From a virus: DNA of 25,642 nt. Within the stretch, counting starts at the first letter, position 1. The number at the start of each line of letters is the position of its first letter. Of this stretch, positions 8,873-25,258 are shown one piece after another. A model generated the notes under the pieces. The model saw nothing but the letters and a program-made list of their open reading frames with translations. It was not told the origin of the DNA and did not search any database. Both the position numbers and the translations under genes were made by a program. The DNA is taken from positions 1 through 25,642 of the IMG/VR virus record IMGVR_UViG_3300030117_002244, one strand, 5' to 3'.

Positions 8873-9745
8873 ATGAGTTCACAAATTACAACTGCATTTG
8901 TCGAGCAGTATTCTGCTAACGTTCAAATGCTGTCACAACAAATGGGTTCGCAATTGCGTTCTGCTGTGGATGTTGAGAGTATAACAGGTAAAAATGCGTT
9001 TTTTGAACAAGTTGGCTCACGAGCTGCTATTAAGAAAACGTCAAGACATGCTGATACTCCACAATTAGACACACCACACGCAAGAAGACGTGTAAGTCTC
9101 GAAGACTACGTTTGGGCGGATCTAATTGATGACGTTGACAAAGTTAGAATGTTAATCGATCCAACTAGCTCTTACGCAAAAGCAGCAGCAGCTGCAATGA
9201 ACAGAGCTATTGATGACGAGATCATTTCAGCTTTGGGCGGCACTGCATTTACTGGCACGTCTGGCGGTACATCAACTGTACTACCAACAGCAAGTAAATT
9301 TGCAACATCAGACCAATCAGATGGTTTAACTATTGCTAAGTTATTAGCGGCTAAAAAACGTTTTGACTTACAAAGTGTTGATCCATCGATCCCTAGATAT
9401 ATCGTATGTGGGCCACAACAAATTTCTGATTTGTTGGCGACTACAGAAATTAAATCTAGTGATTTTAACACAGTTAAAGCTCTTGCTCAGGGTGATGTTG
9501 ACTCTTTCTTAGGGTTCAAGTTTATCACTTCTAACAGATTGAGCTTTGACGCAACAAACACGGATGACAGGCTTTGCTTTGCCTTCACTCAAGACGCTAT
9601 CAAACTTGCTATTGGCAAGGACATCACAGCTAAAATTGATGAGAGAAACGACAAAAACTACTCTACTCAAGTTTACTATTGTATGTCAGTTGGTGCGACT
9701 AGAATGGAAGAAGTAAAAGTTTTCCAAATTCCGTGCAACGAATAA
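8873..9745 (+). CDS. Major capsid protein
   Basis: This 290-residue protein forms the icosahedral shell. The ribosome site AAGGAGG is the strongest in the head module. Family features: an N-terminal helix F-V-E-Q-Y-S-A-N-V-Q-M-L-S-Q-Q, then R-A-A-I-K-K and a loop with D-T-P-Q-L-D-T-P-H-A-R-R-R-V corresponding to the E-loop region, followed by the spine helix D-D-V-D-K-V-R-M-L-I-D-P-T-S-S-Y, A-M-N-R-A-I-D-D-E-I-I-S-A-L-G-G, and late strands F-I-T-S-N-R-L. This is the HK97-fold capsid family annotated as 'phage capsid protein' in many marine podoviruses. Length is shorter than T7 gp10 (about 345) but normal for this group. It lies between scaffold and decoration genes. Confidence 0.92.
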   Translation: MSSQITTAFVEQYSANVQMLSQQMGSQLRSAVDVESITGKNAFFEQVGSRAAIKKTSRHADTPQLDTPHARRRVSLEDYVWADLIDDVDKVRMLIDPTSSYAKAAAAAMNRAIDDEIISALGGTAFTGTSGGTSTVLPTASKFATSDQSDGLTIAKLLAAKKRFDLQSVDPSIPRYIVCGPQQISDLLATTEIKSSDFNTVKALAQGDVDSFLGFKFITSNRLSFDATNTDDRLCFAFTQDAIKLAIGKDITAKIDERNDKNYSTQVYYCMSVGATRMEEVKVFQIPCNE

Positions 9746-9761
9746 TAGATAGGAGATAATT

Positions 9762-10241
9762 ATGGGTACTAAAAATTCAGACCTAATTGCTAATTTCGAA
9801 GCAACTCCATCAGTTAAGAGTAGTGCTGCATTGCTAAGCGGAGTAGTCCGTGTAGCTCAAGGCACTGTTTCTCTTGCTACTGGAGATAGTGATGACAATG
9901 ACATTGTTATGCTTGCACCGATTCCTAGCAACGCTGTTGTATCTCAACTATTTATTGGTTCAGACACACTAGGCGGCTCGTGTACTTTCAACGTTGGAAT
10001 TTACACGTCTGCTGGAGTTGTAAAAGACGAAGACGTTTTTGCTTCTGCTGTAGCTGATGAGGCTGCAATGGCTGACGTTCGTTTTGAGGCTGCTGATATA
10101 AACACAGCTGGCCAACAACTTTGGCAACTTGCTGGAGACAGTGAAGATCCAGGCGGATATTTCTATATTGCTGCAACTATGGCAGCAGCTGGAGGTACTG
10201 CTGGTGACATGTCTTTCAACATTCACTATGTTATAAACTAG
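9762..10241 (+). CDS. Putative capsid decoration / minor head protein
   Basis: This 159-residue protein follows the capsid gene after 16 bases, with AGGAG upstream. It is predicted mostly beta: V-V-R-V-A-Q-G-T-V-S-L, D-N-D-I-V-M-L-A-P-I-P-S-N-A-V-V-S-Q-L-F-I, C-T-F-N-V-G-I-Y, and G-Y-F-Y-I-A-A-T-M. It is acidic and rich in Ala, Gly and Asp. Proteins of this size and composition directly after the capsid gene are commonly virion proteins in marine podoviruses, and the beta-sandwich pattern fits a surface decoration protein. No specific fold is proven. The downstream hairpin ends the head module here. Confidence 0.65.
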   Translation: MGTKNSDLIANFEATPSVKSSAALLSGVVRVAQGTVSLATGDSDDNDIVMLAPIPSNAVVSQLFIGSDTLGGSCTFNVGIYTSAGVVKDEDVFASAVADEAAMADVRFEAADINTAGQQLWQLAGDSEDPGGYFYIAATMAAAGGTAGDMSFNIHYVIN

Positions 10242-10251
10242 CAACAACAAG

Positions 10252-10272
10252 GGCGGCCTTCGGGCCGCCTTT
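10252..10272 (+). terminator. UUCG hairpin ending the head module
   Basis: GGCGGCC (10252-10258), loop TTCG, and GGCCGCC (10263-10269) form a perfect 7-bp GC stem with the very stable UUCG tetraloop. Only TTTA then CTTAATT follows, so the U-tract is weak. It begins 11 bases after the decoration gene stop. Partial termination, lowering transcription of downstream tail genes relative to capsid, is the expected effect; 3'-end protection of the capsid transcript is the alternative. Confidence 0.75.
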
Positions 10273-10290
10273 ACTTAATTAGGAGATTAT

Positions 10291-10479
10291 ATGCCAAAAC
10301 ACACACACAAAACAAAAGATGGTAGAACAGTGAAAAAAGGTTTGTATTATTATATGAACAGAAGAAAAGCCGCAGGCACAAGCCGTAAAGGTAAAGGCAC
10401 TGTGACTGAAAAAGCACTTGCTCGTTCTGCTAAAACTGCTTACGACCCAAGCAAAAAAAAGAAAACAATGGTAGGTTAG
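10291..10479 (+). CDS. Small basic TLLG-tail protein 4 (ends TMVG)
   Basis: This 62-residue, strongly basic protein has TTAGGAG eight bases upstream. The start M-P-K-H-T-H-K-T-K-D-G-R-T-V-K-K-G-L-Y-Y-Y-M-N-R-R-K-A-A-G-T-S is a pattern I recognise from short marine phage proteins, function unknown. The middle contains K-G-K-G-T-V and A-R-S-A-K-T-A; the end is K-K-K-K-T-M-V-G. Its composition suggests nucleic-acid contact or packing inside the capsid. It is the first of three consecutive small basic genes between the head hairpin and the tail adaptor, all with the same kind of C-terminus. Confidence 0.7.
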   Translation: MPKHTHKTKDGRTVKKGLYYYMNRRKAAGTSRKGKGTVTEKALARSAKTAYDPSKKKKTMVG

Positions 10480-10488
10480 GAGATAAAT

Positions 10489-10641
10489 ATGCCTGGACAC
10501 GTTGACAAAAAAAACAAAAAAAACAAAAACAAAAACAAAAGCCTAGCAGCTATGTATGGTGATCCAAACCAAGTCACTAGAGGTGACGTTATTGCTGCAG
10601 CTATAAAAAACAAGAAAAAGAAAAATACGTTGGTTGGCTAA
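10489..10641 (+). CDS. Small Lys/Asn-rich TLLG-tail protein 5 (ends TLVG)
   Basis: This 50-residue protein runs from an ATG at 10489 (GGAG eight bases upstream, within the previous gene's stop region) to a TAA overlapping the next ATG. The start M-P-G-H-V-D is followed by an almost pure Lys/Asn run (residues 7-17) encoded by long A tracts, then S-L-A-A-M-Y-G-D-P-N-Q-V-T-R-G-D-V-I-A-A-A-I and K-K-K-K-N-T-L-V-G. The M-P-G-H-x-x-K-K start recurs in short phage proteins from memory. The function is not known. The A tracts make this gene prone to slippage or sequencing error, but the frame is intact here. Confidence 0.7.
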   Translation: MPGHVDKKNKKNKNKNKSLAAMYGDPNQVTRGDVIAAAIKNKKKKNTLVG

Positions 10642-10913
10642 TGGCACGTAAAGAACACCAGAATCCATCTGGGGGTCTTAACGCAAAAGGCAGAAAATTT
10701 TACGGTGTAAAAGCTCCTGTCAGCAAAGGCACAAACCCAAGAAGGGTGAGCTTTGCTGCAAGATTTTCTGGCATGAAAGGCCCATTAGAAAAAGACGGTA
10801 AACCAACAAGACTAAAACTTGCACTTAAAAAATGGGGCTTTGGCAGCAAAGAGGCAGCTGCTAAGTTTGCCGCAAACAATAAGGCATCAAACAAAAAAAC
10901 ATTAGTAGGTTAA
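10641..10913 (+). CDS. DUF6321-like basic phage protein (TLLG-tail protein 6)
   Basis: This 90-residue protein starts in a TAATG overlap. It matches the DUF6321-type pattern: N-P-S-G-G-L-N-A-K-G-R-K-F-Y-G at 8-22, L/V-K-A-P-V-S-K-G-T-N-P-R-R-V-S-F-A-A-R-F-S-G-M-K-G-P at 23-48, K-P-T-R-L-K-L-A-L-K-K-W at about 54-65. It then ends N-K-K-T-L-V-G. The usual family Cys in 'S-F-C-A-R-M' is Ala here. These proteins are widespread in phages that have no shared name for their role; they are small, basic and probably virion-associated or DNA-binding. The family assignment is from motif memory. Confidence 0.75.
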   Translation: MARKEHQNPSGGLNAKGRKFYGVKAPVSKGTNPRRVSFAARFSGMKGPLEKDGKPTRLKLALKKWGFGSKEAAAKFAANNKASNKKTLVG

Positions 10914-10914
10914 T

Positions 10915-11502
10915 ATGACATCAGTAGTAGAAATTTGTAATTCAGCACTTAACAGTTTAGGCGCAGCAAACATAACAGCACTAACAGAAGATTCACGTAA
11001 TGCACGATTATGCAATCAAAGATATGAACCTGTACGTGATGCAATCTTTAGAAGTCATTATTGGAATTGTTTAATTAAAAGAGTAGAGCTTGCAGCTGAT
11101 ACCGCAGCTCCTGCATACGAATACGACAAACAATATACTTTGCCAGCAGACTGCATACGAGTTTTGCAAATAGGTGGATTTCATAACGGATCATCCTCTA
11201 TGCTTAGCGGTGGACAAACGTACAAGATTGAGGGCAAAAAGGTAATCACAGACGAGGAAGAAATATTTTTGACTTACGTTGCAAAAATAACCGATCCTCA
11301 AGAATATGACACTTTGCTAGTTGAAACTATTGCAGCTAGATTAGCTGCAGAGCTGGCTTATGCTATAACGCAATCTAACACAGTAGCACAATCATTAGAT
11401 GCAGTTTATCAGGAAAAGTTAAGAGAGGCACGTTTTGTTGATGCATCAGAAGGCACACCTTATGACGTTGATGCAAGTACATTTATTAATGCGAGGTACT
11501 GA
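10915..11502 (+). CDS. Tail adaptor / tail tubular protein A (T7 gp11-like)
   Basis: This 195-residue adaptor joins the connector to the nozzle and acts as part of the gate holding DNA in the head. Features: I-C-N-S-A-L-N-S-L-G-A near the start, then E-D-S-R-N-A-R-L-C-N-Q-R-Y-E-P-V-R-D-A at 25-43 followed by H-Y-W-N-C, and Y-D-K-Q-Y-T-L-P-A-D-C-I-R-V-L. The helix L-L-V-E-T-I-A-A-R-L-A-A-E-L-A and the ending F-I-N-A-R-Y are typical. Length matches T7 gp11 (196). The stop overlaps the nozzle ATG (TGATG). It lies at the expected place at the head of the tail operon. Confidence 0.9.
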   Translation: MTSVVEICNSALNSLGAANITALTEDSRNARLCNQRYEPVRDAIFRSHYWNCLIKRVELAADTAAPAYEYDKQYTLPADCIRVLQIGGFHNGSSSMLSGGQTYKIEGKKVITDEEEIFLTYVAKITDPQEYDTLLVETIAARLAAELAYAITQSNTVAQSLDAVYQEKLREARFVDASEGTPYDVDASTFINARY

Positions 11503-14024
11503 TGGCTAAAACAACTTTTGCCTTTTCAAGTTTTACATCAGGAGAGCTGTCACCTAGGCTTGATGGACGTATTGATCTTGAAAAATATTTTAGTGGTACA
11601 AAAACCTTAGAAAATATGGTTATACACCCGCACGGTGGAGCATCGAGAAGACCTGGCACAAAATTTATAAGTGAAGTTAAAACCTCAGCAAACACAACAA
11701 GACTGATACCTTTTGAATTTTCTACAACACAAACTTACATCATGGAGTTTGGCAACGAGTATATTAGGTTTTTTAAAGATAACGGTATAATTACTGAGGC
11801 TGCAAAAACTATATCAGGTATTACAAAAGCAAACCCAGGTGTAGTCACAGCAAGCTCACACGGATACTCTAACGGTGATTATGTTATTATATCCAGCGTT
11901 GTTGGAATGACAGAGTTAAATGGTAGACAGTTTAAGGTTGCTGGAGTCACGACAAATACATTTCAACTGCAAGATATGGACGGCAACAATTTTGATACAT
12001 CATCACTTACAACTTACGCCTCTGCAGGTTCTGCATTTAAAATTTATCAAATAACCTCCCCTTACACAACTGCACAACTGTTTGATATAAAGTTTGCTCA
12101 ATCAGCTGACGTGATGTATTTAGTTCATCCTGATGTTGATATAAGAAAACTTACAAGAACAGGACATACTTCTTGGACACTAGCCACTGTATCAATCAGT
12201 GGTAGCCCTAGTCCTGGACTAAGCGGCTCAGATGACAGGCCCAGCTCTGTGACATTTTTTGAGCAAAGATTAGTTTTTGCTGGAACAAACAACAATCCTC
12301 AATCTTTATGGTTTAGTAAAGCTGGTGCTTATGAAAATTTTACTACAGGCACAAATGCGACTGACGCTATGATTTATACAATTGCAAGTAATCAGGTCAA
12401 CGCTATTAGATTTATGTCAAACCAAACAGAATTACTTATTGGCACAACAGGTGGTGAATTTATTGCAACTTCTGGTACAAACAGTGAGCCTATTACACCA
12501 ACAAACATACAAATAACCAGACAAACAAACTACGGAGCTGCAAACGTTGATGCAATACAAATTGCAAACGTAACGATGTTTTTGCAACGTGCAAAAAGAA
12601 AAGTGAGAGAAATGGTTTATAATTACGAAGTAGATGGTTTTATTGCACCTGATATGACTATTTTAGCAGAACATATAACTGAGGGAGGGCTTACTTCTTT
12701 TGCTTATCAACAAGAACCAGACAGTATTTTATGGGCCACAAGGGCTGACGGCACGCTGCTTGGCCTAACATACCAAAGAAACGAAAAAGTTGTTGGCTGG
12801 CACAGACATATTCTAGGCGGCTTTAGTGATAGCGGTAAAAGTATTGTACGGTCATTCAAAAGTTTTACAGCAAATTCAACAAACGTTAGTACAACAAACA
12901 ACACTATTACAATCAGCTCACATGGTTTTAGCACTGGTGATCCTGTCTATTATTTTACAGAAAGCAACGCCATAGGAGGCATCACTACAGACCTTCTGTA
13001 TTTTGCTATTGCAACAGACAGCAATACCTTAAAACTTGCAACAACTTCTGCAAACGCAACAGCTGGCACAGCGGTTGATCTTACAACAGCTCCAGGATCA
13101 GATACTACACAATACATTGTCAAAGGAGTAAATTTAGCAACTAATGTAGTGTATTCTGCATCACACGGACTTGCTACTGGCGATCATTTCTATTACGAAT
13201 TAGGAGGAACAGGTCTTAATAATATAACTGATAAACAAAAATATTTTGTAAAAAAGATAGATAAAAATCAATTTAAAATAGCAGCAGATAGAAAAATTAA
13301 AACTTTTGTAGATTTGACTTATGATTTTACAGTCACTACAGCAAGAACAGATAAAATTTTATTAGACGCTGCTGTTGAGTCTGTGGCTGTCATACCAAGT
13401 GATCAAGACGAATATCAATTATATCTTTTAGTCAAAAGATACGTGAACGGATCAACAAGAAGATTTGTTGAATTTTTAACAAACTTTGAGTTTGGAGAGG
13501 CCCAGGACAATGCTTTTTTTGTAGACAGTGGACTGACATACGATGACGTTCCAACATCGACAATATCAGGATTAGATCATTTAGAGGGTGAAACTGTATC
13601 AATATTAGCAGATGGCGCAACGCACGCTGACAAAACTGTAAGTGGAGGTAATATAACATTAGATAGAACAGCACAAAAAGTACACGTAGGATTGAATTAC
13701 AATTCAATATTGCAAACCTTACGTATCGAGGCTGGATCACAGCAGGGTGTTGCACAATCTAAAATAAAAAGAATAAACGAAATAACTGTAAGATTACACA
13801 AAACGTTAGGTGTTGAAGTTGGCGGAGATTTAGACAACATGGAAAACATACCTTTTAGATCAAGTGCAGCTATCATGGGTTCACCAATAGATTTATTTTC
13901 TGGTGATAAAAAAATTGAGCTGCGGGATGATTACAACACAGACGGACATGTATTTGTACGACAATCACAACCTTTACCATTAACAGTGTTATCGATCTAT
14001 CCTGAAATAACAGTATATGATTAA
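11502..14024 (+). CDS. Tail nozzle / tail tubular protein B (T7 gp12-like) with inserted repeats
   Basis: This 840-residue tail nozzle has the diagnostic N-terminus F-T-S-G-E-L-S-P-R-L-D-G-R-I-D at 11-25, then K-T-L-E-N-M-V-I-H-P-H-G-G-A-S-R-R-P-G-T at 34-53 and the beta-propeller strand F-E-Q-R-L-V-F-A-G at 253-261. Three copies of a small beta module with the motif S-H-G-[YFL]-x-x-G-D start near residues 119, 473 and 554; this resembles the so-called FCCH-type repeats annotated in phage tail proteins. The modules are probably surface-exposed insertions in the nozzle and may contact receptors or gp13-position proteins. Length is close to T7 gp12 (794) plus insertions. The last eight bases overlap the next gene. 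Confidence 0.88.
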   Translation: MAKTTFAFSSFTSGELSPRLDGRIDLEKYFSGTKTLENMVIHPHGGASRRPGTKFISEVKTSANTTRLIPFEFSTTQTYIMEFGNEYIRFFKDNGIITEAAKTISGITKANPGVVTASSHGYSNGDYVIISSVVGMTELNGRQFKVAGVTTNTFQLQDMDGNNFDTSSLTTYASAGSAFKIYQITSPYTTAQLFDIKFAQSADVMYLVHPDVDIRKLTRTGHTSWTLATVSISGSPSPGLSGSDDRPSSVTFFEQRLVFAGTNNNPQSLWFSKAGAYENFTTGTNATDAMIYTIASNQVNAIRFMSNQTELLIGTTGGEFIATSGTNSEPITPTNIQITRQTNYGAANVDAIQIANVTMFLQRAKRKVREMVYNYEVDGFIAPDMTILAEHITEGGLTSFAYQQEPDSILWATRADGTLLGLTYQRNEKVVGWHRHILGGFSDSGKSIVRSFKSFTANSTNVSTTNNTITISSHGFSTGDPVYYFTESNAIGGITTDLLYFAIATDSNTLKLATTSANATAGTAVDLTTAPGSDTTQYIVKGVNLATNVVYSASHGLATGDHFYYELGGTGLNNITDKQKYFVKKIDKNQFKIAADRKIKTFVDLTYDFTVTTARTDKILLDAAVESVAVIPSDQDEYQLYLLVKRYVNGSTRRFVEFLTNFEFGEAQDNAFFVDSGLTYDDVPTSTISGLDHLEGETVSILADGATHADKTVSGGNITLDRTAQKVHVGLNYNSILQTLRIEAGSQQGVAQSKIKRINEITVRLHKTLGVEVGGDLDNMENIPFRSSAAIMGSPIDLFSGDKKIELRDDYNTDGHVFVRQSQPLPLTVLSIYPEITVYD

Positions 14025-14457
14025 AATTGTACCGTTCTCATTTGAACATGCAAAGTACATAGCGTATAACGAAATGAACGCAGAAATAGTTAATGTAAAA
14101 GAAAGATACATGTCAAACCTTGAGCAGCTTGTAAAACCTGAAACTAGCTGGACAGGTATGATTGACGATAAAATCATTGCATCAGGAGGCATGGTGCAAT
14201 TGTGGGATAATGTTTATGAAGGCTGGATTATGGCAACGGCTGACATAAAAAAACATCCAATAAGCACAGCAAGAATAATAAAAAAAATTTTTGCAGAGGT
14301 CATGGAAAAGCATGACGTGCATCGACTGCAAACAACTGTAAAAGCAGATTACGAAATAGGACACAAGTTTGCAAAATGGCTTGGCTTAGAAAAAGAGGGA
14401 TTGATGAAAAAATATTTAGACGACAATGATTATTATTTATATTCGAGGATTTATTAA
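14017..14457 (+). CDS. GNAT-like protein at the T7 gp13 position (DUF2833-like)
   Basis: This 146-residue protein overlaps the nozzle gene by eight bases. Visible elements: an N-terminal strand and helix typical of GNAT folds (V-P-F-S-F-E-H-A-K-Y-I-A), G-M-I-D-D-K-I-I-A-S-G-G-M as the beta2-beta3 hairpin at 47-59, a substrate-side strand Y-E-G-W-I-M-A-T-A, a helix, then H-R-L-Q-T-T-V and G-H-K-F-A-K-W-L-G-L-E-K-E-G-L-M-K-K-Y at 115-133, the classic C-terminal GNAT arm. T7 gp13 (DUF2833) lies at the same place and is needed for virion maturation. The acetyl-CoA loop is poorly conserved, so the role may be structural. Stop and next ATG overlap (TAATG). Confidence 0.75.
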   Translation: MIKIVPFSFEHAKYIAYNEMNAEIVNVKERYMSNLEQLVKPETSWTGMIDDKIIASGGMVQLWDNVYEGWIMATADIKKHPISTARIIKKIFAEVMEKHDVHRLQTTVKADYEIGHKFAKWLGLEKEGLMKKYLDDNDYYLYSRIY

Positions 14458-14948: not shown

Positions 14949-16804
14949 TGGTTAAAATTCCTACATACGAAACACAAACACAAGCAATTGCTCCTATAAG
15001 CAGAACAAGACCTCAGTTAGATTCTGGTGCGTCCAGAGTTTTTGACGACCTGGCTAGATTTGCAGATGCAGCGGGTGATGCTGCTATGACAATTAGTGAG
15101 AAACACACAAAAATAAGACAGGACACTGAATTTTATAATAGTATAGAAAAATTACAAAAAGGTGATCCTGACAACAATCAGCCAGGAGTAAATGAATATT
15201 TTATTACAGCCTCACAAAGTAATGATTTTCCAAACGCATTAGGTGATTTTAATAATTCATCAAAAACCTGGATGACAACAATTGCAGAGGGTATTGATGA
15301 TGATGTCGTGCGGCAAAGGTTTTTAATAAAAGGTGGTGAGTATATAACAAACAATTATTTGCAGGCAGAAAAAAATATTTTTGTAAATGCAAGAGAATCG
15401 TACAACACCACTATTAAAGAACAAATAAATACAGAAATAAGCAATTATATAAACGCAACTAACGCAGACGACAGTTTGGGAGCTGCTATGGCACACGATG
15501 CGTTGTTTGGCAAAAAAGACGCAGCTGGTAATATTACTGCAATGTCAATGGGTGAAAGACTAGATGACAGAGGCATGTTGCCGCCAGGTATAACCGCTGA
15601 TCAATTTGATGCACAAACTGAGGCATCGTTAGAAGCTGTGTTTGCTGCAGACTTGATTGAAAACAATCCAGGTGAATTTATTAGACTAGACGGTGAAGGG
15701 TTTTTTGACAAAATAGATGCATCAAAACTTAACCCTTTACGAGCCAAGGCTAAAGCTAATCTTACTGCACAAACTATAAACAGATTAATTACATACTACC
15801 CTATAAACGGTGACGCAAGTTTTGAAGACTCACAAAAACTATTTGAGGAAGCTACAGCTGGCAGTTTTGGTGGTGACGAAATTTTTCAAAATTTATACAA
15901 CACTCTTGATCAGGAAGGTAAAAATCTTTTTCAGGATGCAATCAGTCAACGTCATAATCAACAAAAATCTGAAATACAAGCAACAAGAAACAATCAACAA
16001 TTCCGTGAACAAGAAGCAAACAAAGAAATGTTTATGGAAGCCATGCAAACAATAAACTCAACTTTGAGTATTAATGATATTGAAAATACTCAATGGATTG
16101 GCGTTGAGGGTGAAAGAATGAAACAATCTTTAATTGATTTAGTTGTAAAACGTGAAAGCGGAGAGCTGCCATCAGATGCTAATTTAAGATTGTATGACGC
16201 AATATTTGACAGAGTTGCAAACAAACAAATAACTTCATTGTATGATCAATTTACTTTGCCTGGAGAAACAGAAGCTAAAAGCATAGCAGAACGTACAGGC
16301 GGCCCTGGTGGATTAGGTTTTAATCAATTTAACACTTTTGCAAGTTTGATAAGCAATAGAAACAATGACGAAGTAATACAAAACGAGCAAGATTTCCAAC
16401 TATTTTTAAAAGCATACGAAGGACAAATATTAGGCAGCCCTGCTATGACACAAGGCAATGTCAAAGCAGAACAGCGTTATTTTGATTTTGTATTAGAAAT
16501 GAGAGCTTTTTTTGACAAAGGCATAGCAGAGGGAAAAACGGCAACTCAACTTTTATCATCAGCAAGTCCTGATTTTATTTTAAAAGATATATTATCTAAT
16601 TACATTGTTAATAATGAAGTTTTGATGAAAGAGATGCTAGAATCTTTTATACCACCTGAACAAGCAGATGTAAGCCCTGACAGACAAAATTGGTTAAATC
16701 GTGCTGAGGAATTTAATCCAAATGGCTTACCTTTTGAGGAATGGATTACAACACCTGAGTATCAAGAATGGAAAAAGTTAGAACCTAAATTACAAGCAGA
16801 ATGA
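14948..16804 (+). CDS. Internal virion protein, T7 gp15-like position
   Basis: The gene encodes 618 residues. The ATG at 14948 in a TAATG overlap is chosen over the in-frame TTG at 14933. The N-terminus M-V-K-I-P-T-Y-E is familiar from marine podovirus gp15-position proteins. The body is almost wholly alpha-helical with many Asn/Gln/Glu, including L-D-D-R-G-M-L-P-P-G-I-T-A-D-Q-F and A-R-A/K-A-N-L-T-A-Q type segments; no catalytic motif stands out. By position, size (T7 gp15 is 747) and helical content it should form the periplasmic channel during DNA ejection. Sequence similarity to T7 itself is not visible to me. The last four bases overlap the next gene (ATGA). Confidence 0.75.
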   Translation: MVKIPTYETQTQAIAPISRTRPQLDSGASRVFDDLARFADAAGDAAMTISEKHTKIRQDTEFYNSIEKLQKGDPDNNQPGVNEYFITASQSNDFPNALGDFNNSSKTWMTTIAEGIDDDVVRQRFLIKGGEYITNNYLQAEKNIFVNARESYNTTIKEQINTEISNYINATNADDSLGAAMAHDALFGKKDAAGNITAMSMGERLDDRGMLPPGITADQFDAQTEASLEAVFAADLIENNPGEFIRLDGEGFFDKIDASKLNPLRAKAKANLTAQTINRLITYYPINGDASFEDSQKLFEEATAGSFGGDEIFQNLYNTLDQEGKNLFQDAISQRHNQQKSEIQATRNNQQFREQEANKEMFMEAMQTINSTLSINDIENTQWIGVEGERMKQSLIDLVVKRESGELPSDANLRLYDAIFDRVANKQITSLYDQFTLPGETEAKSIAERTGGPGGLGFNQFNTFASLISNRNNDEVIQNEQDFQLFLKAYEGQILGSPAMTQGNVKAEQRYFDFVLEMRAFFDKGIAEGKTATQLLSSASPDFILKDILSNYIVNNEVLMKEMLESFIPPEQADVSPDRQNWLNRAEEFNPNGLPFEEWITTPEYQEWKKLEPKLQAE

Positions 16805-19800
16805 CAATATTTACTGATATAGAAGAAATGCAGGCCCTAGGTGCATCTGAGCAAGAAATACTTTTGTACAGGCAAAATAAAATACAAGAGATGCGTGCAA
16901 TAGGAGCAACAGATGAAGAAATATCTATACAGCTAGGCACGCCTAAAATAGATAACACAACACAAAAAAAATATTGGCAAGATTTAGAAGAAACAAGACC
17001 ACTGACTTCTACAGAAGAAGCAGAACAAAAATGGCTGCAAAAAAACAATTCAAAACAAAATTTTATACCTGAGGTAAGTTATCAGCCTGGCGGGCCTGTT
17101 CTTGATCCTGTATCACAAATGATTGTTGAAAAACAAGAACAAAGTCCGATAGATAACAAATTTGAGTTTGGCAGATATTTTAAGAGAGGACTTGGCATGT
17201 CAAATGCTAACCTTATGTTTCAATATTTTACTGACGGATCTTTACCGCAAGGATACAGCCTTGATCAAACACAACCCTCAAGATTTGAAAGAGTCACAGA
17301 ACAAGTAGCAAACATCCTTGCTGATTTACCTATTTATGCTTCAACAGCTTATTTGGCTGGTAGAGTTGAAAGAGGCAAAACTGGCGGTTTAGCTCCTTTA
17401 TATGCTGCAGGTTTTGTAAATGGAGCAATAAGAGAAAGTTTTATACAAGCACTAGAAAGAGGAGACGTTGATACCTGGGGTGAGTGGTGGGATATTTTTA
17501 CACATGAATCAATAGCTGCTGGAAACAAAGAAGGTCTTACACTAGCTGGTTCAATCGGTATGGGTAAAGTTGCTAAAACCCTTGCAACAAAAGCGTTGGC
17601 AACACCAACAGCAAAGAAATACGGTTTACCTAGAGAGCTGGCAGCAATACCTGAATACTTAGCAACAGTAGGTGGTTTTAACATTATAGGTGGATTGTTA
17701 GAAGGTGAAATGCCAACCAAGCAAGAGGTTATAGATTCTTTTTTTGTTGTTGGTATTCTTATGGGTGGTGCAAGAGCTACACAATATGGTGTTGAAAAAT
17801 ACAAACAAAAAATAAGAGAATCGGAAAAACCACCACACGAAACAATACTTGATATTGAAAAAAGCAAAATTACAAAAGAAGATATTGCAAGTAAAAACAA
17901 TACAGACAGAACAAACGGGTATATTTTAACGCAGGAACGTTTAAATAATTTAAGAAAAAAGTTTGATGAAGGGCCACTTGAATACAGAGAATCTAAAGAA
18001 TTAAAATTTTTAGAGGAAGCACAACGTAATCAAGAAATACCTGGTCAAAGAGATGCACAGCTTACACCTGATACAGTCAACTCTATTCCATTAAGAGATT
18101 TGTTGAATGAAAATTTATATAACAAAAGAAAAGTACGCAGCATACTTGAAGATCCAATAATTGAAAAACATCCTGAATTAATTAAGTTAGAGGCAGAAGC
18201 CAATAGAATAAAGTCTACAGAAAAAATAGCTGAGGAAGCAGGACTATATACACGTGAAACAGGATTTGCTGAGGCCTGGCAAAAACAAAATAACTGGAAA
18301 ACTGTAATTGAAGATTTGTCAAACTCAGAAATATCTTTTAACAATAGAAAAGCAATTTTATTATTAGGTGGCGCAGCTACAGGTAAATCAAGTTATGCAA
18401 ATAGAATAAATCAAGGTAAAGAAAAATATCAAACTGTTGACCCTGATATGGTAAAAGAACATCCTCAGTTTAAAGAAACCTATCAGGGCGGCAAAGGAGC
18501 AAATGCTTTACATTTAGAAAGCAAAGCAATAGCTGCAAAAATATTAAGCAATCTAGTTAATCAGGGCAAAAACATAATATACCCAATGGTAGGCTCTGGC
18601 GGCACAGGAAAAATACAACAAGTCGTAGATGCTTTACAAAAAAAAGGGTATGAAATAAGCGTTGCATATTTAGAAATACCTAGGTCAGAAGCCATTTACA
18701 GGGCAACAAAAAGGGCCTTGGAAAATGGAAGATATGTACCACTTGACTATGTTAAAAATGCAAGTAAAAATTCGGAGATAAGTTATGAATACGCAAAAAC
18801 AGCAAAAGAAGTCGTTGAATCAAAAAGAATCGACAACAGCGGCAGCAGACCAAAAATTACAGAACAATCAACAAAGTCTGGTAGAGACGATGTTGGAGCA
18901 AGACGAGATGGGGATAGACCTGGTGATAAAGGAGCTGAACCAGTCACCATCCAAGACAGGATAAGTTTTGAGCCGCCTCCTGATCCAAAATTTAGTTTTA
19001 CAAAATTTAGAAACGATTTAGTTAAAGACTACATAGATAAACTTCATCCTATTTTATTAGCTGTTCGCAGAACAGAACAAGGTAAAATACAGGGTGGTGA
19101 GCTAAACGCATATGAACAATTAAGAATACAGCCAGGCATGGTAGGCCGTGCTGAACATTTTATTAATACAGGTACATTAAAATTTTCTGATTTATCAATA
19201 GTTGGTAAAGGCTTGTTTGATATTTTATCTCCACTGAAAAACGCAACTGAATATAAGGCGTTTGCAGAATATGCAGTAGCAAAGAGAGTTGTTGAATTAT
19301 CACAAAGAAAAATAGAAACAGGCGTAGATATTGCAAAAGCAAAAGAAGTTATACAAAAAGGCAAAGAAAAATACGAAACAATATTTAGAGAAATTAATAA
19401 GTACAATGTTGATTTATTAACATATCTAAAAGATGCAGGTATAATTACTGAAAAAGCATACAAAGTTATGCTTGAGGCCAACAAAGATTACGTTCCGTTT
19501 GGTAGAGTTATGCAAGAAGGCTCAGAGGGTGGCAGCATAGGAAAAACTGTAAGCAACCCAATCAAACAAATGAAAGGTAGTGAAAGAGTTATTATTGACC
19601 CGTTAGAAAGTATTTTTAAAAATACATATCATTTTATTACACTTGCCGAACGAAATATTGCAAACAAAAAATTTATTGATTTTACACAAAAGCACAAAAC
19701 AGATTTTCCTGAGGTATTTCAGGTTAAAGGTAGAGCAAAAGCGTTGCAAATAAAAAAAGGTGAGTTAGACAATGTATTAAGTGATGCTGCAAAAGCTGAT

Positions 19801-21546
19801 ATTGCAACACTCGAAAACTTAACAATATTTAGACGAGACGGTGTAAAGGCAGGTGAAACACAAATAGTTGTTTTTAGAAATGGTAAAAAAGAAGTATGGG
19901 AAGTTGGCAGAGATTTTGCTGAGGCTATTAATGGTCTTAATGCCTCCGCATCTAGTGGATTAATTAATTTTCTATCTATGCCTGCACGATGGCTGCGATC
20001 TGGTTCAACACTTGCACCAGACTTTTTTCTACGAAACCTTTTACGAGATACAGGTACAGCTGCTATTTTTAGTAAATCTGGCAGGGGTATTGGTGGATTA
20101 CCGATAATTACTACGTTTCGTGGATTAATACACATGTATCGTGGTAGAGACAAAAAAGTTGCAGACAGCATTGTCAGAGATTTTGAAAAGTCAGGTGCTA
20201 TGCAATCAATGCTAGTTAGCTTTGATAGAAAATATTTTGACAAAAAAATTCTGAATGAGTTGTACAACACTCCTGTACGTAATTTAATAAAAAGCCCATT
20301 AGAAACTCTTAGGATTTTTTCTGAATTAGCAGAACAAACAACCAGGGTAGCTGAATTTAATACTGCATACAAAAAAGCAAAAGCAGAGGGATTATCAGAA
20401 AAAGCAGCATTAGAACGAGCTGGTTTTGAAGGACGAGATATTACAATTGATTTTGCAAAAATCGGTGCAAAAATGCAAGCTGTAAATAGGATTGTGGCTT
20501 TTATAAACGCAAGAGTGCAAGGCTATGCAAAATTGTATGAGTCTTTTAGAGATCAACCAATGCGTACTTCTGCAAGAATATTTGCACAAATTATGCTGCC
20601 GTCAGCACTTCTTTGGTATGTAAACAAAGATGACCCTGTTTATAAGGCTTTACCTAGATGGCAAAAAGACCTGTTTTACATAGTTATTGTTGGAGAGGGA
20701 GATGACGCAACGGTTTACAGAATACCAAAACCGTTTGAATTAGGAGTGGTTTTTGGCACAGGTACAGAAAAATTATTGGATTTTGTCACTGACAGAAGCA
20801 GTGACGATGATCTAAAAAAGTTTGTTGGAGATTTATTAGAAGATAACACAAAAGGCTTGATGCCTATACCACAGTTTTTAATGCCGTTTGTAGAAAATTA
20901 TTTCAATAAAAGTTTGTTTACAGGACAACCTATTATACCAAGAGGCACAGAGGGTATTTTACCAGAATACCAACACAGTCCATATAATAGTGAGGTATCC
21001 AAAGCACTTGGCACTATTATAGCTGAAATAGACAAAGAAACCTTAGCTGCGTCACCAGCAAGAATTGATTCATTAATTAGGGGATGGACAGGTACACTAG
21101 GTCAGTATGCTTTAGCCATTGCCGATAAAGCATTGATTGCATCTGGTATTATTGATGATCCTGTAAAACCAGAAGCCACTCTTGCCGACATTCCTATTAT
21201 AAAGGCATTTGTTGTACGTAATCCGTCAGCTGGTTCATCTTATGTTGAAAAATTTTATGATTATTATGGGCCAGTAGCACAGGCTTTTGCAACACTAAAT
21301 AAAGTTGATGATCCGTTAGAAAAGCAAAAAATATTAGAAGATATTAACGAAAGAATAGGTTTTGATTCTTTAGTCTTGGAGGGTTTTGCTAACACGCTGT
21401 CAGCTCAGAGAAAATTCGTAAATCTTGTTTACAATAATAAAGGGATTTCACCGCAAGAAAAAAGGGAGCAAATAGACGATACTTATAGGATGATGATAGA
21501 GGTGGCTAAAATAGCCGTAGAAATGTTTGAAAAAAACAAACAATAA
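16801..21546 (+). CDS. Giant ejection/polyvalent protein (T7 gp16 position) with zeta-toxin-like kinase and LPD38-like region
   Basis: This 1581-residue protein starts in an ATGA overlap. By position it corresponds to T7 gp16 (1318), the last ejection protein. Order: helical N-terminus with two similar short motifs (A-L-G-A-S-E-Q-E-I and A-I-G-A-T-D-E-E-I at 12-40); Gly/Ala-rich hydrophobic stretches at about 190-330; a zeta-toxin-like kinase at about 517-665 with Walker A G-G-A-A-T-G-K-S (523-530), V-D-P-D (546-549) before H-P-Q-F, L-H-L-E-S-K, and R-x-x-x-R-A-L-E-N-G-R-Y-V-P (634-647); a charged linker at 670-720; a helical region; and an LPD38-like segment from about 1040 to 1330 with A-P-D-F-F-L-R-N-L-L-R-D at 1071-1082. 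No lytic transglycosylase motif is seen, unlike T7 gp16. Delivery of the kinase into the host is inferred. Confidence 0.8.
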   Translation: MTIFTDIEEMQALGASEQEILLYRQNKIQEMRAIGATDEEISIQLGTPKIDNTTQKKYWQDLEETRPLTSTEEAEQKWLQKNNSKQNFIPEVSYQPGGPVLDPVSQMIVEKQEQSPIDNKFEFGRYFKRGLGMSNANLMFQYFTDGSLPQGYSLDQTQPSRFERVTEQVANILADLPIYASTAYLAGRVERGKTGGLAPLYAAGFVNGAIRESFIQALERGDVDTWGEWWDIFTHESIAAGNKEGLTLAGSIGMGKVAKTLATKALATPTAKKYGLPRELAAIPEYLATVGGFNIIGGLLEGEMPTKQEVIDSFFVVGILMGGARATQYGVEKYKQKIRESEKPPHETILDIEKSKITKEDIASKNNTDRTNGYILTQERLNNLRKKFDEGPLEYRESKELKFLEEAQRNQEIPGQRDAQLTPDTVNSIPLRDLLNENLYNKRKVRSILEDPIIEKHPELIKLEAEANRIKSTEKIAEEAGLYTRETGFAEAWQKQNNWKTVIEDLSNSEISFNNRKAILLLGGAATGKSSYANRINQGKEKYQTVDPDMVKEHPQFKETYQGGKGANALHLESKAIAAKILSNLVNQGKNIIYPMVGSGGTGKIQQVVDALQKKGYEISVAYLEIPRSEAIYRATKRALENGRYVPLDYVKNASKNSEISYEYAKTAKEVVESKRIDNSGSRPKITEQSTKSGRDDVGARRDGDRPGDKGAEPVTIQDRISFEPPPDPKFSFTKFRNDLVKDYIDKLHPILLAVRRTEQGKIQGGELNAYEQLRIQPGMVGRAEHFINTGTLKFSDLSIVGKGLFDILSPLKNATEYKAFAEYAVAKRVVELSQRKIETGVDIAKAKEVIQKGKEKYETIFREINKYNVDLLTYLKDAGIITEKAYKVMLEANKDYVPFGRVMQEGSEGGSIGKTVSNPIKQMKGSERVIIDPLESIFKNTYHFITLAERNIANKKFIDFTQKHKTDFPEVFQVKGRAKALQIKKGELDNVLSDAAKADIATLENLTIFRRDGVKAGETQIVVFRNGKKEVWEVGRDFAEAINGLNASASSGLINFLSMPARWLRSGSTLAPDFFLRNLLRDTGTAAIFSKSGRGIGGLPIITTFRGLIHMYRGRDKKVADSIVRDFEKSGAMQSMLVSFDRKYFDKKILNELYNTPVRNLIKSPLETLRIFSELAEQTTRVAEFNTAYKKAKAEGLSEKAALERAGFEGRDITIDFAKIGAKMQAVNRIVAFINARVQGYAKLYESFRDQPMRTSARIFAQIMLPSALLWYVNKDDPVYKALPRWQKDLFYIVIVGEGDDATVYRIPKPFELGVVFGTGTEKLLDFVTDRSSDDDLKKFVGDLLEDNTKGLMPIPQFLMPFVENYFNKSLFTGQPIIPRGTEGILPEYQHSPYNSEVSKALGTIIAEIDKETLAASPARIDSLIRGWTGTLGQYALAIADKALIASGIIDDPVKPEATLADIPIIKAFVVRNPSAGSSYVEKFYDYYGPVAQAFATLNKVDDPLEKQKILEDINERIGFDSLVLEGFANTLSAQRKFVNLVYNNKGISPQEKREQIDDTYRMMIEVAKIAVEMFEKNKQ

Positions 21547-23831: not shown

Positions 23832-24008
23832 ATGGCACAACAAGAAGTAGGAGGCCCACTATTTGTAGGATCAGGGCCTGCATCAGAACAGATACCTGAA
23901 CACGATGCTACAATAGATGAAAATCAAGTAGTTGGTCATGCGGTATTAGCAGGGCCAGTAACATTTAACGCAGTGGTCACGGTCACTGGCGTATTGGTGG
24001 TGATGTAA
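23832..24008 (+). CDS. 58-residue mini beta-strand protein of the fibre operon
   Basis: The gene runs from an ATG with AAGGAGA upstream (23821-23827) to a TAA overlapping the next fibre ATG (TAATG), giving 58 residues. The N-terminal half is polar, with P-L-F-V-G-S-G-P; the C-terminal half is a run of alternating small and hydrophobic residues (A-V-L-A-G-P-V-T-F-N-A-V-V-T-V-T-G-V-L-V-V-M), like a single turn of the triple beta-helix seen in fibre proteins. The good ribosome site and TAATG coupling make it credible. It may be an adaptor that trimerises with the S74 fibre; this is inference. Confidence 0.6.
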   Translation: MAQQEVGGPLFVGSGPASEQIPEHDATIDENQVVGHAVLAGPVTFNAVVTVTGVLVVM

Positions 24009-25258
24009 TGGCTGGAGTACAAATAGACGGAGTCAATAACAAGATTGACTTTGATGATGATGCAGATACATCAATTTCAAGCTCGACAGATGATACGCTA
24101 TTAATAGAATCTGGCGGTGCAAACATAGCATCTATTACAGCAGGAGAGTTTGCAATAAACGATGGTTCAGCAGACATAGACTTTCGAGTAGAAACAAATG
24201 GTGAAGATCACATGTTATTCGTAGACGGTGGTAATAATGCAGTTTCAATTAATTCTTCTTTTTCCTCAAGCTATCCTGATTCTGGTAGTGATAAATTACA
24301 AGTACATGCTGGACAATTAGCTGTTTCAAATTATTCTGCTGGAGCTACTGGGGCTACTATGAATTTTATTAAATCAAGAGGGACTAGCGTTGGTGGTGCT
24401 GCTGGTACAGCAATTAATCAAAATGACGTATGTGCCGCAATAGTGGCTTATGGTGACGATAGTAACTCTTTTGAAGTAGCTGGTAAATTACAATTTATGG
24501 CTGGTGAGAACTGGGCTAATGGAGATTGTGCTGGACAGTTTGAGCTTTATTTAACACCTGATGGATCAACAACAACAGACCTTAAAATAAGAATGTTAAA
24601 TGATGGTAGAATGGGTGTTGGAGTTTATCCTGAGGCAAGCGGTGATGCTAGAGGACTACCTGTAAGTGGAAGACTACATGCTACAGAAGATTTTGCTGGT
24701 TATCAGTGCGTGTACGCCACAACAACAGCAGGAAGTGGCAACATATACGGTATGCACGTTCAACATCATGGACAAGACCCTGATAATAACACATCAAGAT
24801 TTTATTCTGGTGGAGCTGCAGCAGGTAATAGATATATTGTTTATTCAGATGGTGACGTGGTAAATCATGATAATTCTTATGGTGCTATTTCTGATGAAAG
24901 AATTAAACAAGACATTGTAGATTGCAATGAGCAATGGGATGATATTAAAGCACTAAAAATTAGAAACTACAAAAAGAAAGATGATGTAGAAAAGTATGGG
25001 GATGATGCCTGGGTACAACTTGGAGTGATAGCTCAAGAGTTAGAAGAAGCAGGTATGGACAAATGTGTAAAACAAGAATCTTTTTATGATGATACAGATT
25101 CTGAAGTTACTCAAGGTAAAGCAAATGCGGGTGATATTAAAGAATACAAATCAGTCAAGTATTCTATTCTTTACATGAAAGCTATCAAAGCATTGCAAGA
25201 AGCTATGGCAAAAATAGAAACACTTGAAACAAAAGTAAAAGCATTGGAGGACGCATAA
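24008..25258 (+). CDS. Tail fibre/spike with S74 intramolecular chaperone
   Basis: This 416-residue protein starts in a TAATG overlap. The N-terminus (V-Q-I-D-G-V-N-N-K-I-D-F-D-D-D-A-D-T-S-I) and following beta repeats fit a trimeric fibre. The C-terminal 120 residues are a peptidase S74 intramolecular chaperone: Y-G-A-I-S-D-E-R-I-K-Q-D-I with the cleavage Ser295 and Lys300 dyad, then W-V-Q-L-G-V-I-A-Q-E-L-E-E-A and K-S-V-K-Y-S-I-L-Y-M-K-A-I-K-A-L-Q-E-A, and a coiled coil at about 390-416. The chaperone assembles the trimer and then cleaves itself off before Ser295. All key residues are present. It sits in the adhesion module, next to another fibre gene. Confidence 0.88.
   Translation: MAGVQIDGVNNKIDFDDDADTSISSSTDDTLLIESGGANIASITAGEFAINDGSADIDFRVETNGEDHMLFVDGGNNAVSINSSFSSSYPDSGSDKLQVHAGQLAVSNYSAGATGATMNFIKSRGTSVGGAAGTAINQNDVCAAIVAYGDDSNSFEVAGKLQFMAGENWANGDCAGQFELYLTPDGSTTTDLKIRMLNDGRMGVGVYPEASGDARGLPVSGRLHATEDFAGYQCVYATTTAGSGNIYGMHVQHHGQDPDNNTSRFYSGGAAAGNRYIVYSDGDVVNHDNSYGAISDERIKQDIVDCNEQWDDIKALKIRNYKKKDDVEKYGDDAWVQLGVIAQELEEAGMDKCVKQESFYDDTDSEVTQGKANAGDIKEYKSVKYSILYMKAIKALQEAMAKIETLETKVKALEDA

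What the first reader, a model, noticed from the sequence alone, without database searches (positions are those of the whole stretch)
18349..18795. Zeta-toxin-like kinase embedded in an ejection protein
Residues about 517-665 of the gp16-position protein show a P-loop (G-G-A-A-T-G-K-S), V-D-P-D-M-V-K-E-H-P-Q-F like the zeta I-D-N-D-T-F-K-Q-Q-H-P-N-F block, L-H-L-E-S-K, and R-x(3)-R-x(4)-G-R-Y-V-P. Zeta toxins phosphorylate UDP-N-acetylglucosamine and poison wall synthesis. In a protein that enters the cell with the DNA, this would act at time zero, against the wall, a defence system or a rival phage. The usual [ED]-G-T motif is replaced by P-M-V-G, so specificity may differ.
Basis: partly seen in the sequence, partly recalled or inferred. 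Interest (0 to 1): 0.76.

Follow-up and report, generated by a model that had tools for sequence, protein, structure and literature searches.

The report
Zeta-type kinase inside pelagiphage ejection protein
A marine phage related to those that infect SAR11 bacteria carries, in the middle of a protein it probably injects with its DNA, an extra enzyme module of the zeta-toxin kinase family; a key substrate-binding residue of that module is replaced, so it is probably an injected kinase with a different target from the classical cell-wall poison.

Summary
Residues 513-675 of the 1581-aa ORF (window 16801-21546) match Pfam Zeta_toxin (E 2e-15, 57 bits, cut-off 22). Zeta (1gvn) and PezT are the best PDB profile matches and top the Foldseek list, though the models are weak (pLDDT 53). 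The ORF sits in the gp16 (ejection protein) slot of an HTVC010P-like pelagiphage and ends in LPD38, a phage polyvalent-protein domain. The zeta module is a discrete cassette: present in five near-kin contigs (window included) under purifying selection (dN/dS 0.11-0.18 between lineages), one clade, found in no other related ejection protein examined. Its 3' edge coincides with an apparent recombination breakpoint. Of the zeta residues essential by mutation, K46, D67, R158 and R171 have equivalents (K529, D549, R638, R644). E116, which contacts UDP-GlcNAc, is Pro595 in all five; other phage zeta domains have Asp there. I read it as an injected zeta-superfamily kinase whose substrate is probably not UDP-GlcNAc. 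Zeta kinases in injected phage proteins were already proposed (Iyer 2017), and cyanophage PSS2 has MuF+zeta, so this is a new variant of a known kind. Injection, activity and substrate are inferred, not shown.

The parts
16801..21546 (+). 1581-aa LPD38 ejection-type protein (gp16 slot) holding the zeta-type kinase
   Evidence: ORF. Synteny tail tube B - GNAT-like protein - internal virion protein B - 623 aa - this gene - tail fibre, as in HTVC034P, Lederberg and (with an HNH insertion) HTVC204P. Homologous over most of its length to their proteins.
16801..17985 (+). N-terminal region (aa 1-395), shared with zeta-less relatives; contains a hydrophobic block at aa 161-330
   Evidence: Alignments; hydropathy
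17986..19005 (+). Inserted cassette (aa about 396-735): lead-in region, zeta kinase, G/P-rich linker
   Evidence: Absent from L005-L007 and not recognisable in HTVC034P, Lederberg, HTVC204P, L022 or L079
18337..18825 (+). Zeta-type P-loop kinase domain (aa 513-675)
   Evidence: PF06414 E 2.1e-15; PDB profile match to 1gvn/2p5t; Foldseek top hits zeta/PezT; dN/dS 0.11-0.18 between lineages
18367..18390 (+). Walker A / P-loop GGAATGKS (K529 = zeta K46)
   Evidence: GGAATGK invariant in the five relatives; aligned to zeta
18436..18447 (+). VDPD (aa 546-549); D549 = catalytic base D67 of zeta
   Evidence: D549 invariant in all eight phage zeta domains aligned; aligned to 1gvn
18511..18522 (+). HLES (aa 571-574), the HxES motif shared with DAC16 and PSS2 zeta domains
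18580..18594 (+). YPMVG (aa 594-598); P595 stands where zeta has E116 and other phage homologues have D
18700..18741 (+). R634-x3-R638-x4-GRYVP; R638 = zeta R158, R644 = zeta R171 (the latter across a gap)
   Evidence: numbering checked
18841..19005 (+). G/P-rich hydrophilic linker (aa 681-735), with the L003 mosaic breakpoint close to its 3' end (about 18950-19050)
19006..21543 (+). Conserved C-terminal half (aa 736-1581), shared with pelagiphages and Vibrio, Shewanella, Bacillus and E. coli phages
20632..21201 (+). LPD38 (large polyvalent protein associated domain 38), aa 1278-1467
   Evidence: PF18857 E 3.2e-38

Best explanation
The ORF is a polyvalent ejection protein of an HTVC010P-like pelagiphage into which a zeta-superfamily P-loop kinase module has been spliced. 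By analogy with T7 gp16, the protein is packaged in the head, ejected with the DNA, and exposes its central part to the cytoplasm. There the kinase would transfer phosphate from ATP to a host molecule, using K529 for ATP, D549 as base, and R638/R644 to hold phosphates. Because the substrate-contacting Glu of zeta (E116) is Pro595, and T118 is not kept in the ungapped alignment, the substrate is probably not UDP-N-acetylglucosamine but another nucleotide-like or sugar-nucleotide metabolite, or another host component. The effect would be immediate host takeover or counter-defence before viral transcription. Shown: domain, conservation, cassette behaviour, gene position. Inferred: packaging, injection, catalysis, substrate, purpose.
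For: Zeta_toxin Pfam E 2e-15. PDB profile matches to zeta and PezT. Zeta/PezT rank first in Foldseek with two separate models. hhalign to phage zeta domains of DAC16, HCTV-1 and PSS2 at probability 99%, E 8e-18. K46, D67, R158 and R171 equivalents invariant in the window lineage, and these residues are essential in zeta (PMC6356619). Purifying selection on the domain at dS about 0.8. gp16-slot synteny. [quoted passage not shown] T7 gp16 topology places the part between its two hydrophobic regions in the cytoplasm (PMC8954989), and the window's kinase lies between hydrophobic stretches at 161-330 and about 1433-1451. Other phages carry zeta in or next to virion-type proteins: PSS2 MuF+zeta, halovirus zeta beside gpF.
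Against: Models are low confidence (mean pLDDT 53, TM by query 0.44-0.49), and VIA-align ranks polynucleotide kinases (Z 9.8, 104 aa) slightly above PezT (Z 8.3, 148 aa), so the fold alone does not pick zeta. In zeta, E116A abolishes both toxicity and ATPase, so the Pro could mean an inactive enzyme. No proteomic evidence of packaging was available. The hydrophobic stretches are weak (KD 1.1-1.3).
Confidence: 0.52

Rival explanations
1. It is a working UDP-N-acetylglucosamine kinase despite the altered motif, and poisons or weakens wall synthesis on entry, as Iyer et al. proposed for zeta domains in polyvalent proteins.
For: Family membership. The same role was proposed for zeta in polyvalent proteins and MuF fusions (PMC5512222 section 25). 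K46, D67, R158 and R171 equivalents kept. Some zeta toxins (ng_zeta1) phosphorylate the C4'-OH instead of the C3'-OH of the sugar (PMC6356619), so pocket changes are tolerated.
Against: E116 is Pro595 in all five relatives, and E116A abolishes zeta toxicity and ATPase. The T118 position is Val in the ungapped alignment. A lytic phage would seem to gain little by poisoning its host's wall at time zero (inference).
Confidence: 0.18
2. It is a nucleic-acid or nucleotide kinase of the wider PNK/AAA_33 group, for example healing 5'-OH ends of tRNAs cut by a defence nuclease, or salvaging nucleotides.
For: VIA-align puts Pnkp1 and T4 Pnk at Z 9.5-9.8 against 8.3 for PezT. phmmer finds Pnkp1 second, weakly (E 0.07). 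AAA_33 is the runner-up kinase model in Pfam.
Against: Sequence profiles prefer zeta by a wide margin (57 against 20 bits; 1gvn E 1.2e-6). No phosphatase or RNA ligase partner turned up in the family scans of this ORF and of the other window ORFs scanned. PNK alignments cover less of the domain.
Confidence: 0.14
3. The module is a degenerate zeta domain kept as an ATP-binding or structural spacer, without phosphotransfer, perhaps aiding refolding or DNA translocation.
For: Loss of E116, whose mutation kills even the ATPase of zeta (PMC6356619); relatives without the module keep the rest of the protein.
Against: P-loop Lys, catalytic Asp, HxES and the Arg residues are invariant across five contigs whose lineages differ at dS about 0.8, and dN/dS is 0.11-0.18. 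A spacer would not be expected to keep the active site.
Confidence: 0.13

Closest known systems
Polyvalent proteins with a zeta-toxin-like kinase (Iyer et al. 2017, PMC5512222)
   Same: Large multidomain proteins presumed injected with the DNA; zeta kinase listed among their domains (conjugative elements, and MuF fusions in phages); LPD38 listed as phage-only.
   Different: Here zeta is joined to LPD38 in a podovirus gp16-slot protein, and the UNAG-contact Glu is Pro; the passages read describe zeta in MuF fusions and conjugative elements, not with LPD38 (their full architecture tables were not available).
Cyanophage PSS2 'minor head protein' (GQ334450, MuF + zeta)
   Same: Marine phage virion-type protein with an embedded zeta domain (E 1e-21) and similar HxES, R and GR motifs.
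   Different: MuF carrier instead of LPD38; keeps D-G-T at the E116-T118 position; about 24% identical.
Haloarcula tailed viruses HCTV-1/HVTV-1 zeta proteins
   Same: Zeta domain in a 1210-aa protein encoded beside gpF (HCTV-1); about 22-24% identical.
   Different: Archaeal hosts; D-K-V at the E116 position (HCTV-1); different carrier protein.
Bacteroides phage DAC16 gene 76 product
   Same: Closest sequence found in the phage records (31% identity, E 7e-10); same DPD, HxES and GRY[VI]P motifs.
   Different: 281-aa protein in which the kinase is the only recognised domain; D-K-V at the E116 position.
Zeta / PezT toxins (1gvn, 3q8x, 2p5t)
   Same: P-loop kinase; K46, D67, R158 and R171 equivalents.
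   Different: Stand-alone TA toxins with an epsilon/PezA antitoxin and with E116, T118 for UDP-GlcNAc; no antitoxin found and no E116 here.
Ejection-slot proteins of HTVC034P, Lederberg, HTVC204P and HTVC010P
   Same: C-terminal half homologous in all, N-terminal region too where full length was compared (34-38% identity in the matching parts); same gene slot.
   Different: No zeta cassette recognised.

Membership tests
Zeta_toxin domain family (PF06414) | Score above the curated Pfam cut-off | tested here: met
   57.2 bits against 22.3; relatives also above
Zeta_toxin domain family (PF06414) | Walker A Lys and catalytic Asp (zeta K46, D67) | tested here: met
   K529, D549; alignment to 1gvn, invariant in A1 and A5
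Zeta_toxin domain family (PF06414) | Phosphate-binding arginines R158, R171 | tested here: met
   R638 placed by extending the alignment a few residues past its printed end, R644 by the GR motif; R638 invariant in A5. The R171 match crosses a gap and is less sure.
Zeta_toxin domain family (PF06414) | Zeta-type fold | tested here: inconclusive
   Foldseek top hits zeta/PezT, but pLDDT 53 and VIA-align does not separate zeta from polynucleotide kinases
UDP-GlcNAc kinase toxins (zeta/PezT proper) | Substrate-contact Glu116 and Thr118 | tested here: not met
   P595 and V597 in the ungapped alignment; a gapped alignment could put S599 at T118, but none seen restores E116
UDP-GlcNAc kinase toxins (zeta/PezT proper) | Adjacent epsilon/PezA-type antitoxin | tested here: not met
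   Domain lies inside one ORF; no antitoxin family hit among the neighbours scanned. The contig is a fragment.
UDP-GlcNAc kinase toxins (zeta/PezT proper) | Phosphorylates UDP-GlcNAc | not testable with these tools
   Needs an enzyme assay
Polyvalent proteins (Iyer 2017) | Large protein joining unrelated domains, including a polyvalent-associated (LPD) domain | tested here: met
   Zeta_toxin plus LPD38 in 1581 aa
Polyvalent proteins (Iyer 2017) | Carried into the host with the DNA | not testable with these tools
   Inferred from the gp16 slot only
T7 gp16-type ejection protein | Gene slot after gp14/gp15-like proteins and before the tail fibre | tested here: met
T7 gp16-type ejection protein | N-terminal lytic transglycosylase domain | tested here: not met
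   No such Pfam match in the ORF; the domain is also lacking in P22-like gp16 (PMC8954989)
T7 gp16-type ejection protein | Sequence homology to T7 gp16 | tested here: inconclusive
   PHROG hits to the C-terminal half are families of unknown function

The most novel reading that the evidence does not exclude
A SAR11-type phage injects, with its genome, a zeta-derived kinase whose acceptor pocket has been re-tooled (E116 to Pro) for a new host metabolite or defence signal: a virion-borne kinase effector acting before any viral gene is expressed, swapped in as a cassette.
Probability: 0.3. Interest if true: 0.7.

Novelty: new variant of a known kind. Interest (0 to 1): 0.42.

Why it matters
Zeta kinases in injected phage proteins are predictions from 2017, and I found no experimental test of one. 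This case places one in the ejection-slot protein of a phage group that infects SAR11, among the most abundant ocean bacteria, with a natural single-lineage gain and zeta-less sister phages for comparison. Its Pro595 makes a sharp biochemical question: which molecule does a zeta kinase phosphorylate when the UDP-GlcNAc contact is gone? It also marks the middle of this ejection protein as a site where cargo is gained; HTVC010P is reported to have a hypervariable region that includes an internal virion protein (PMC10504331).

Tried and rejected
Chance motif match: rejected by Pfam and profile E-values. Opposite-strand feature in the stretch: nothing coherent in the frame translated. Recent foreign insert by composition: not supported; GC, GC3 and codon usage of the zeta part match the rest of the gene. 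Stand-alone zeta gene or TA module: rejected; one uninterrupted ORF, no antitoxin hit. Zeta as a general feature of LPD38 ejection proteins: rejected; of 72 loci (L019-L090) only the four near-kin contigs have it, and ten N-terminal regions scanned, large ones included, gave no Pfam enzyme. More distant zeta relatives in IMG/VR: none found by A1, A3 or the DAC16 query; the scan uses short peptide patterns, so this is weak evidence of absence. Cellular relatives in genome contigs and plasmids: none at the thresholds used. A second AF2 run on a trimmed domain did not raise confidence. The genome search with PF06414 rings in all 14 control genomes, so that family hit alone was not used as evidence in genomes.

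Full report
What was checked. Window 18349-18795 encodes aa 517-665 of a single 1581-aa ORF, 16801-21546 on the + strand. The opposite strand is riddled with stops in the frame translated.

Domain identity. Pfam assigns aa 513-675 to Zeta_toxin (E 2.1e-15; 57 bits, cut-off 22.3), with AAA_33 a distant second for this stretch (20 bits), and aa 1278-1467 to LPD38 (E 3e-38). Against the PDB, phmmer finds zeta first (1gvn, E 3e-4), and a five-sequence profile finds zeta (E 1.2e-6) and PezT (E 1e-3). AlphaFold models are weak (mean pLDDT 53), but both give zeta/PezT as the top Foldseek hits (best E 1e-6 and 7e-6). The fold therefore says 'P-loop kinase' and the sequence says 'zeta branch'.

The carrier protein. 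The contig is a virus record. Its capsid protein is 63-70% identical to those of HTVC010P-type pelagiphages. The gene order tail tube B, GNAT-like protein, internal virion protein B, 623-aa protein, this ORF, tail fibre matches HTVC034P, Lederberg and HTVC204P. This is the slot of T7 gp16. In T7, gp16 crosses the inner membrane and the region between its two membrane segments is thought to lie in the cytoplasm (PMC8954989). The window protein has moderately hydrophobic stretches at aa 161-330 and about 1433-1451, with the kinase between them. That the kinase reaches the cytoplasm is an inference from this analogy.

A cassette. Four IMG/VR contigs (L001-L004, 75-98% identical) carry the same zeta region. 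Relatives at about 35% (L005-L007) align on both sides but lack about 300 residues where it sits. Pairwise alignments with L022, L079, HTVC034P, Lederberg and HTVC204P show the same. An HMM of phage zeta domains finds no other copy in 72 related loci. In a tree of the C-terminal core the five zeta-bearing proteins form one group (100/100 support, one change), which fits a single gain; an older gain with losses elsewhere is less economical. L003 is mostly 95-100% identical to L002 from about position 10800 through the zeta domain, and then switches to mostly 86-96% identity with the window from about 18950-19050, just past the zeta module. This suggests recombination at the cassette edge, though a chimeric metagenome contig is not excluded. 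Base composition and codon usage of the cassette match the gene, so it does not look like a very recent import from a different genome type.

Selection. Between lineages (dS about 0.8) the zeta part has dN/dS 0.11-0.18, similar to the rest of the protein. The active-site residues are invariant in all five. The domain is being kept for a function.

Active site. Mutational work on zeta shows K46, D67, E116, R158 and R171 to be essential and E100, T128 partly dispensable (PMC6356619). D66 of PezT (= D67) is the base, and T118 contacts the substrate phosphate (PMC3062530). In the window the matching residues are K529, D549, R638 and R644. E116 aligns with P595, invariant in the five relatives. The other phage homologues aligned all have Asp at that place: D-K-V in DAC16 and HCTV-1, D-G-T in PSS2, D-T-T in an uncultured phage, D-S-G in Lbo-JY46. 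The loss of the acid is thus special to this lineage among the sequences compared. The claim that it acts on UDP-GlcNAc is not supported.

Prior knowledge. Iyer et al. 2017 (PMC5512222) described polyvalent proteins. They listed the zeta-toxin-like kinase in those of conjugative elements and in MuF fusions of phages, suggested that it weakens the wall during entry, and listed LPD38 as phage-only. Cyanophage PSS2 (MuF plus zeta) and haloviruses (zeta protein beside gpF) are concrete precedents. Other LPD38-core proteins carry a methyltransferase (Shewanella X14) or helicase and methyltransferase (Vibrio D274) upstream. Domain swapping in ejection proteins is a known theme (PMC8954989), and a hypervariable region with an internal virion protein is reported in HTVC010P (PMC10504331). 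The searches run here turned up no paper, by title and abstract, on a zeta kinase in a pelagiphage ejection protein; the library is open-access only.

Judgement. The biological reading (injected effector) is plausible and matches a published concept, so the kind is known. The variant appears new in carrier (LPD38 podovirus ejection protein) and in pocket (E116 to Pro). Substrate and purpose remain open; the assays listed would settle them.

Noticed in passing
L003 about 9531-13766 against window 16801-21037: L003 is a mosaic: L002-like up to just past the zeta module, window-like afterwards. Either recombination at the cassette edge or a chimeric contig.
   Followed up: partly
window 14017-14457: Small gene annotated 'acetyltransferase' (GNAT) in pelagiphage relatives, with a PHROG match to internal virion protein (phrog_308). 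A GNAT-like protein sits in the internal virion gene block across this phage group; it may itself be virion-borne.
   Followed up: no
window 18841-19005: The linker after zeta has low synonymous divergence (dS 0.3-0.5 against about 0.8-2 elsewhere) but relaxed dN/dS (0.4-0.6), and higher GC (0.436).
   Followed up: no
L074 5724-10502, L080 5778-10352, L077 6126-10385, L072 2623-6972, L090 4578-9857: Related ejection proteins with large N-terminal regions (600-1140 aa upstream of the core) that match nothing in Pfam; possible unknown cargo domains.
   Followed up: partly
L105 10868-17813, L106 11167-17335: HTVC203P and HTVC035P, among the closest to the window by capsid protein, have a different ejection gene set (three annotated proteins between internal virion protein B and tail fibre).
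   Followed up: no
window 9800-10400: The region just after the capsid gene drops to about 56-62% DNA identity against L002-L004, while the stretch before it is 86-92%: a second variable spot.
   Followed up: no
window 24008-25258: Tail-fibre gene with a Peptidase_S74 intramolecular chaperone domain (PF13884, E 1.5e-10).
   Followed up: no
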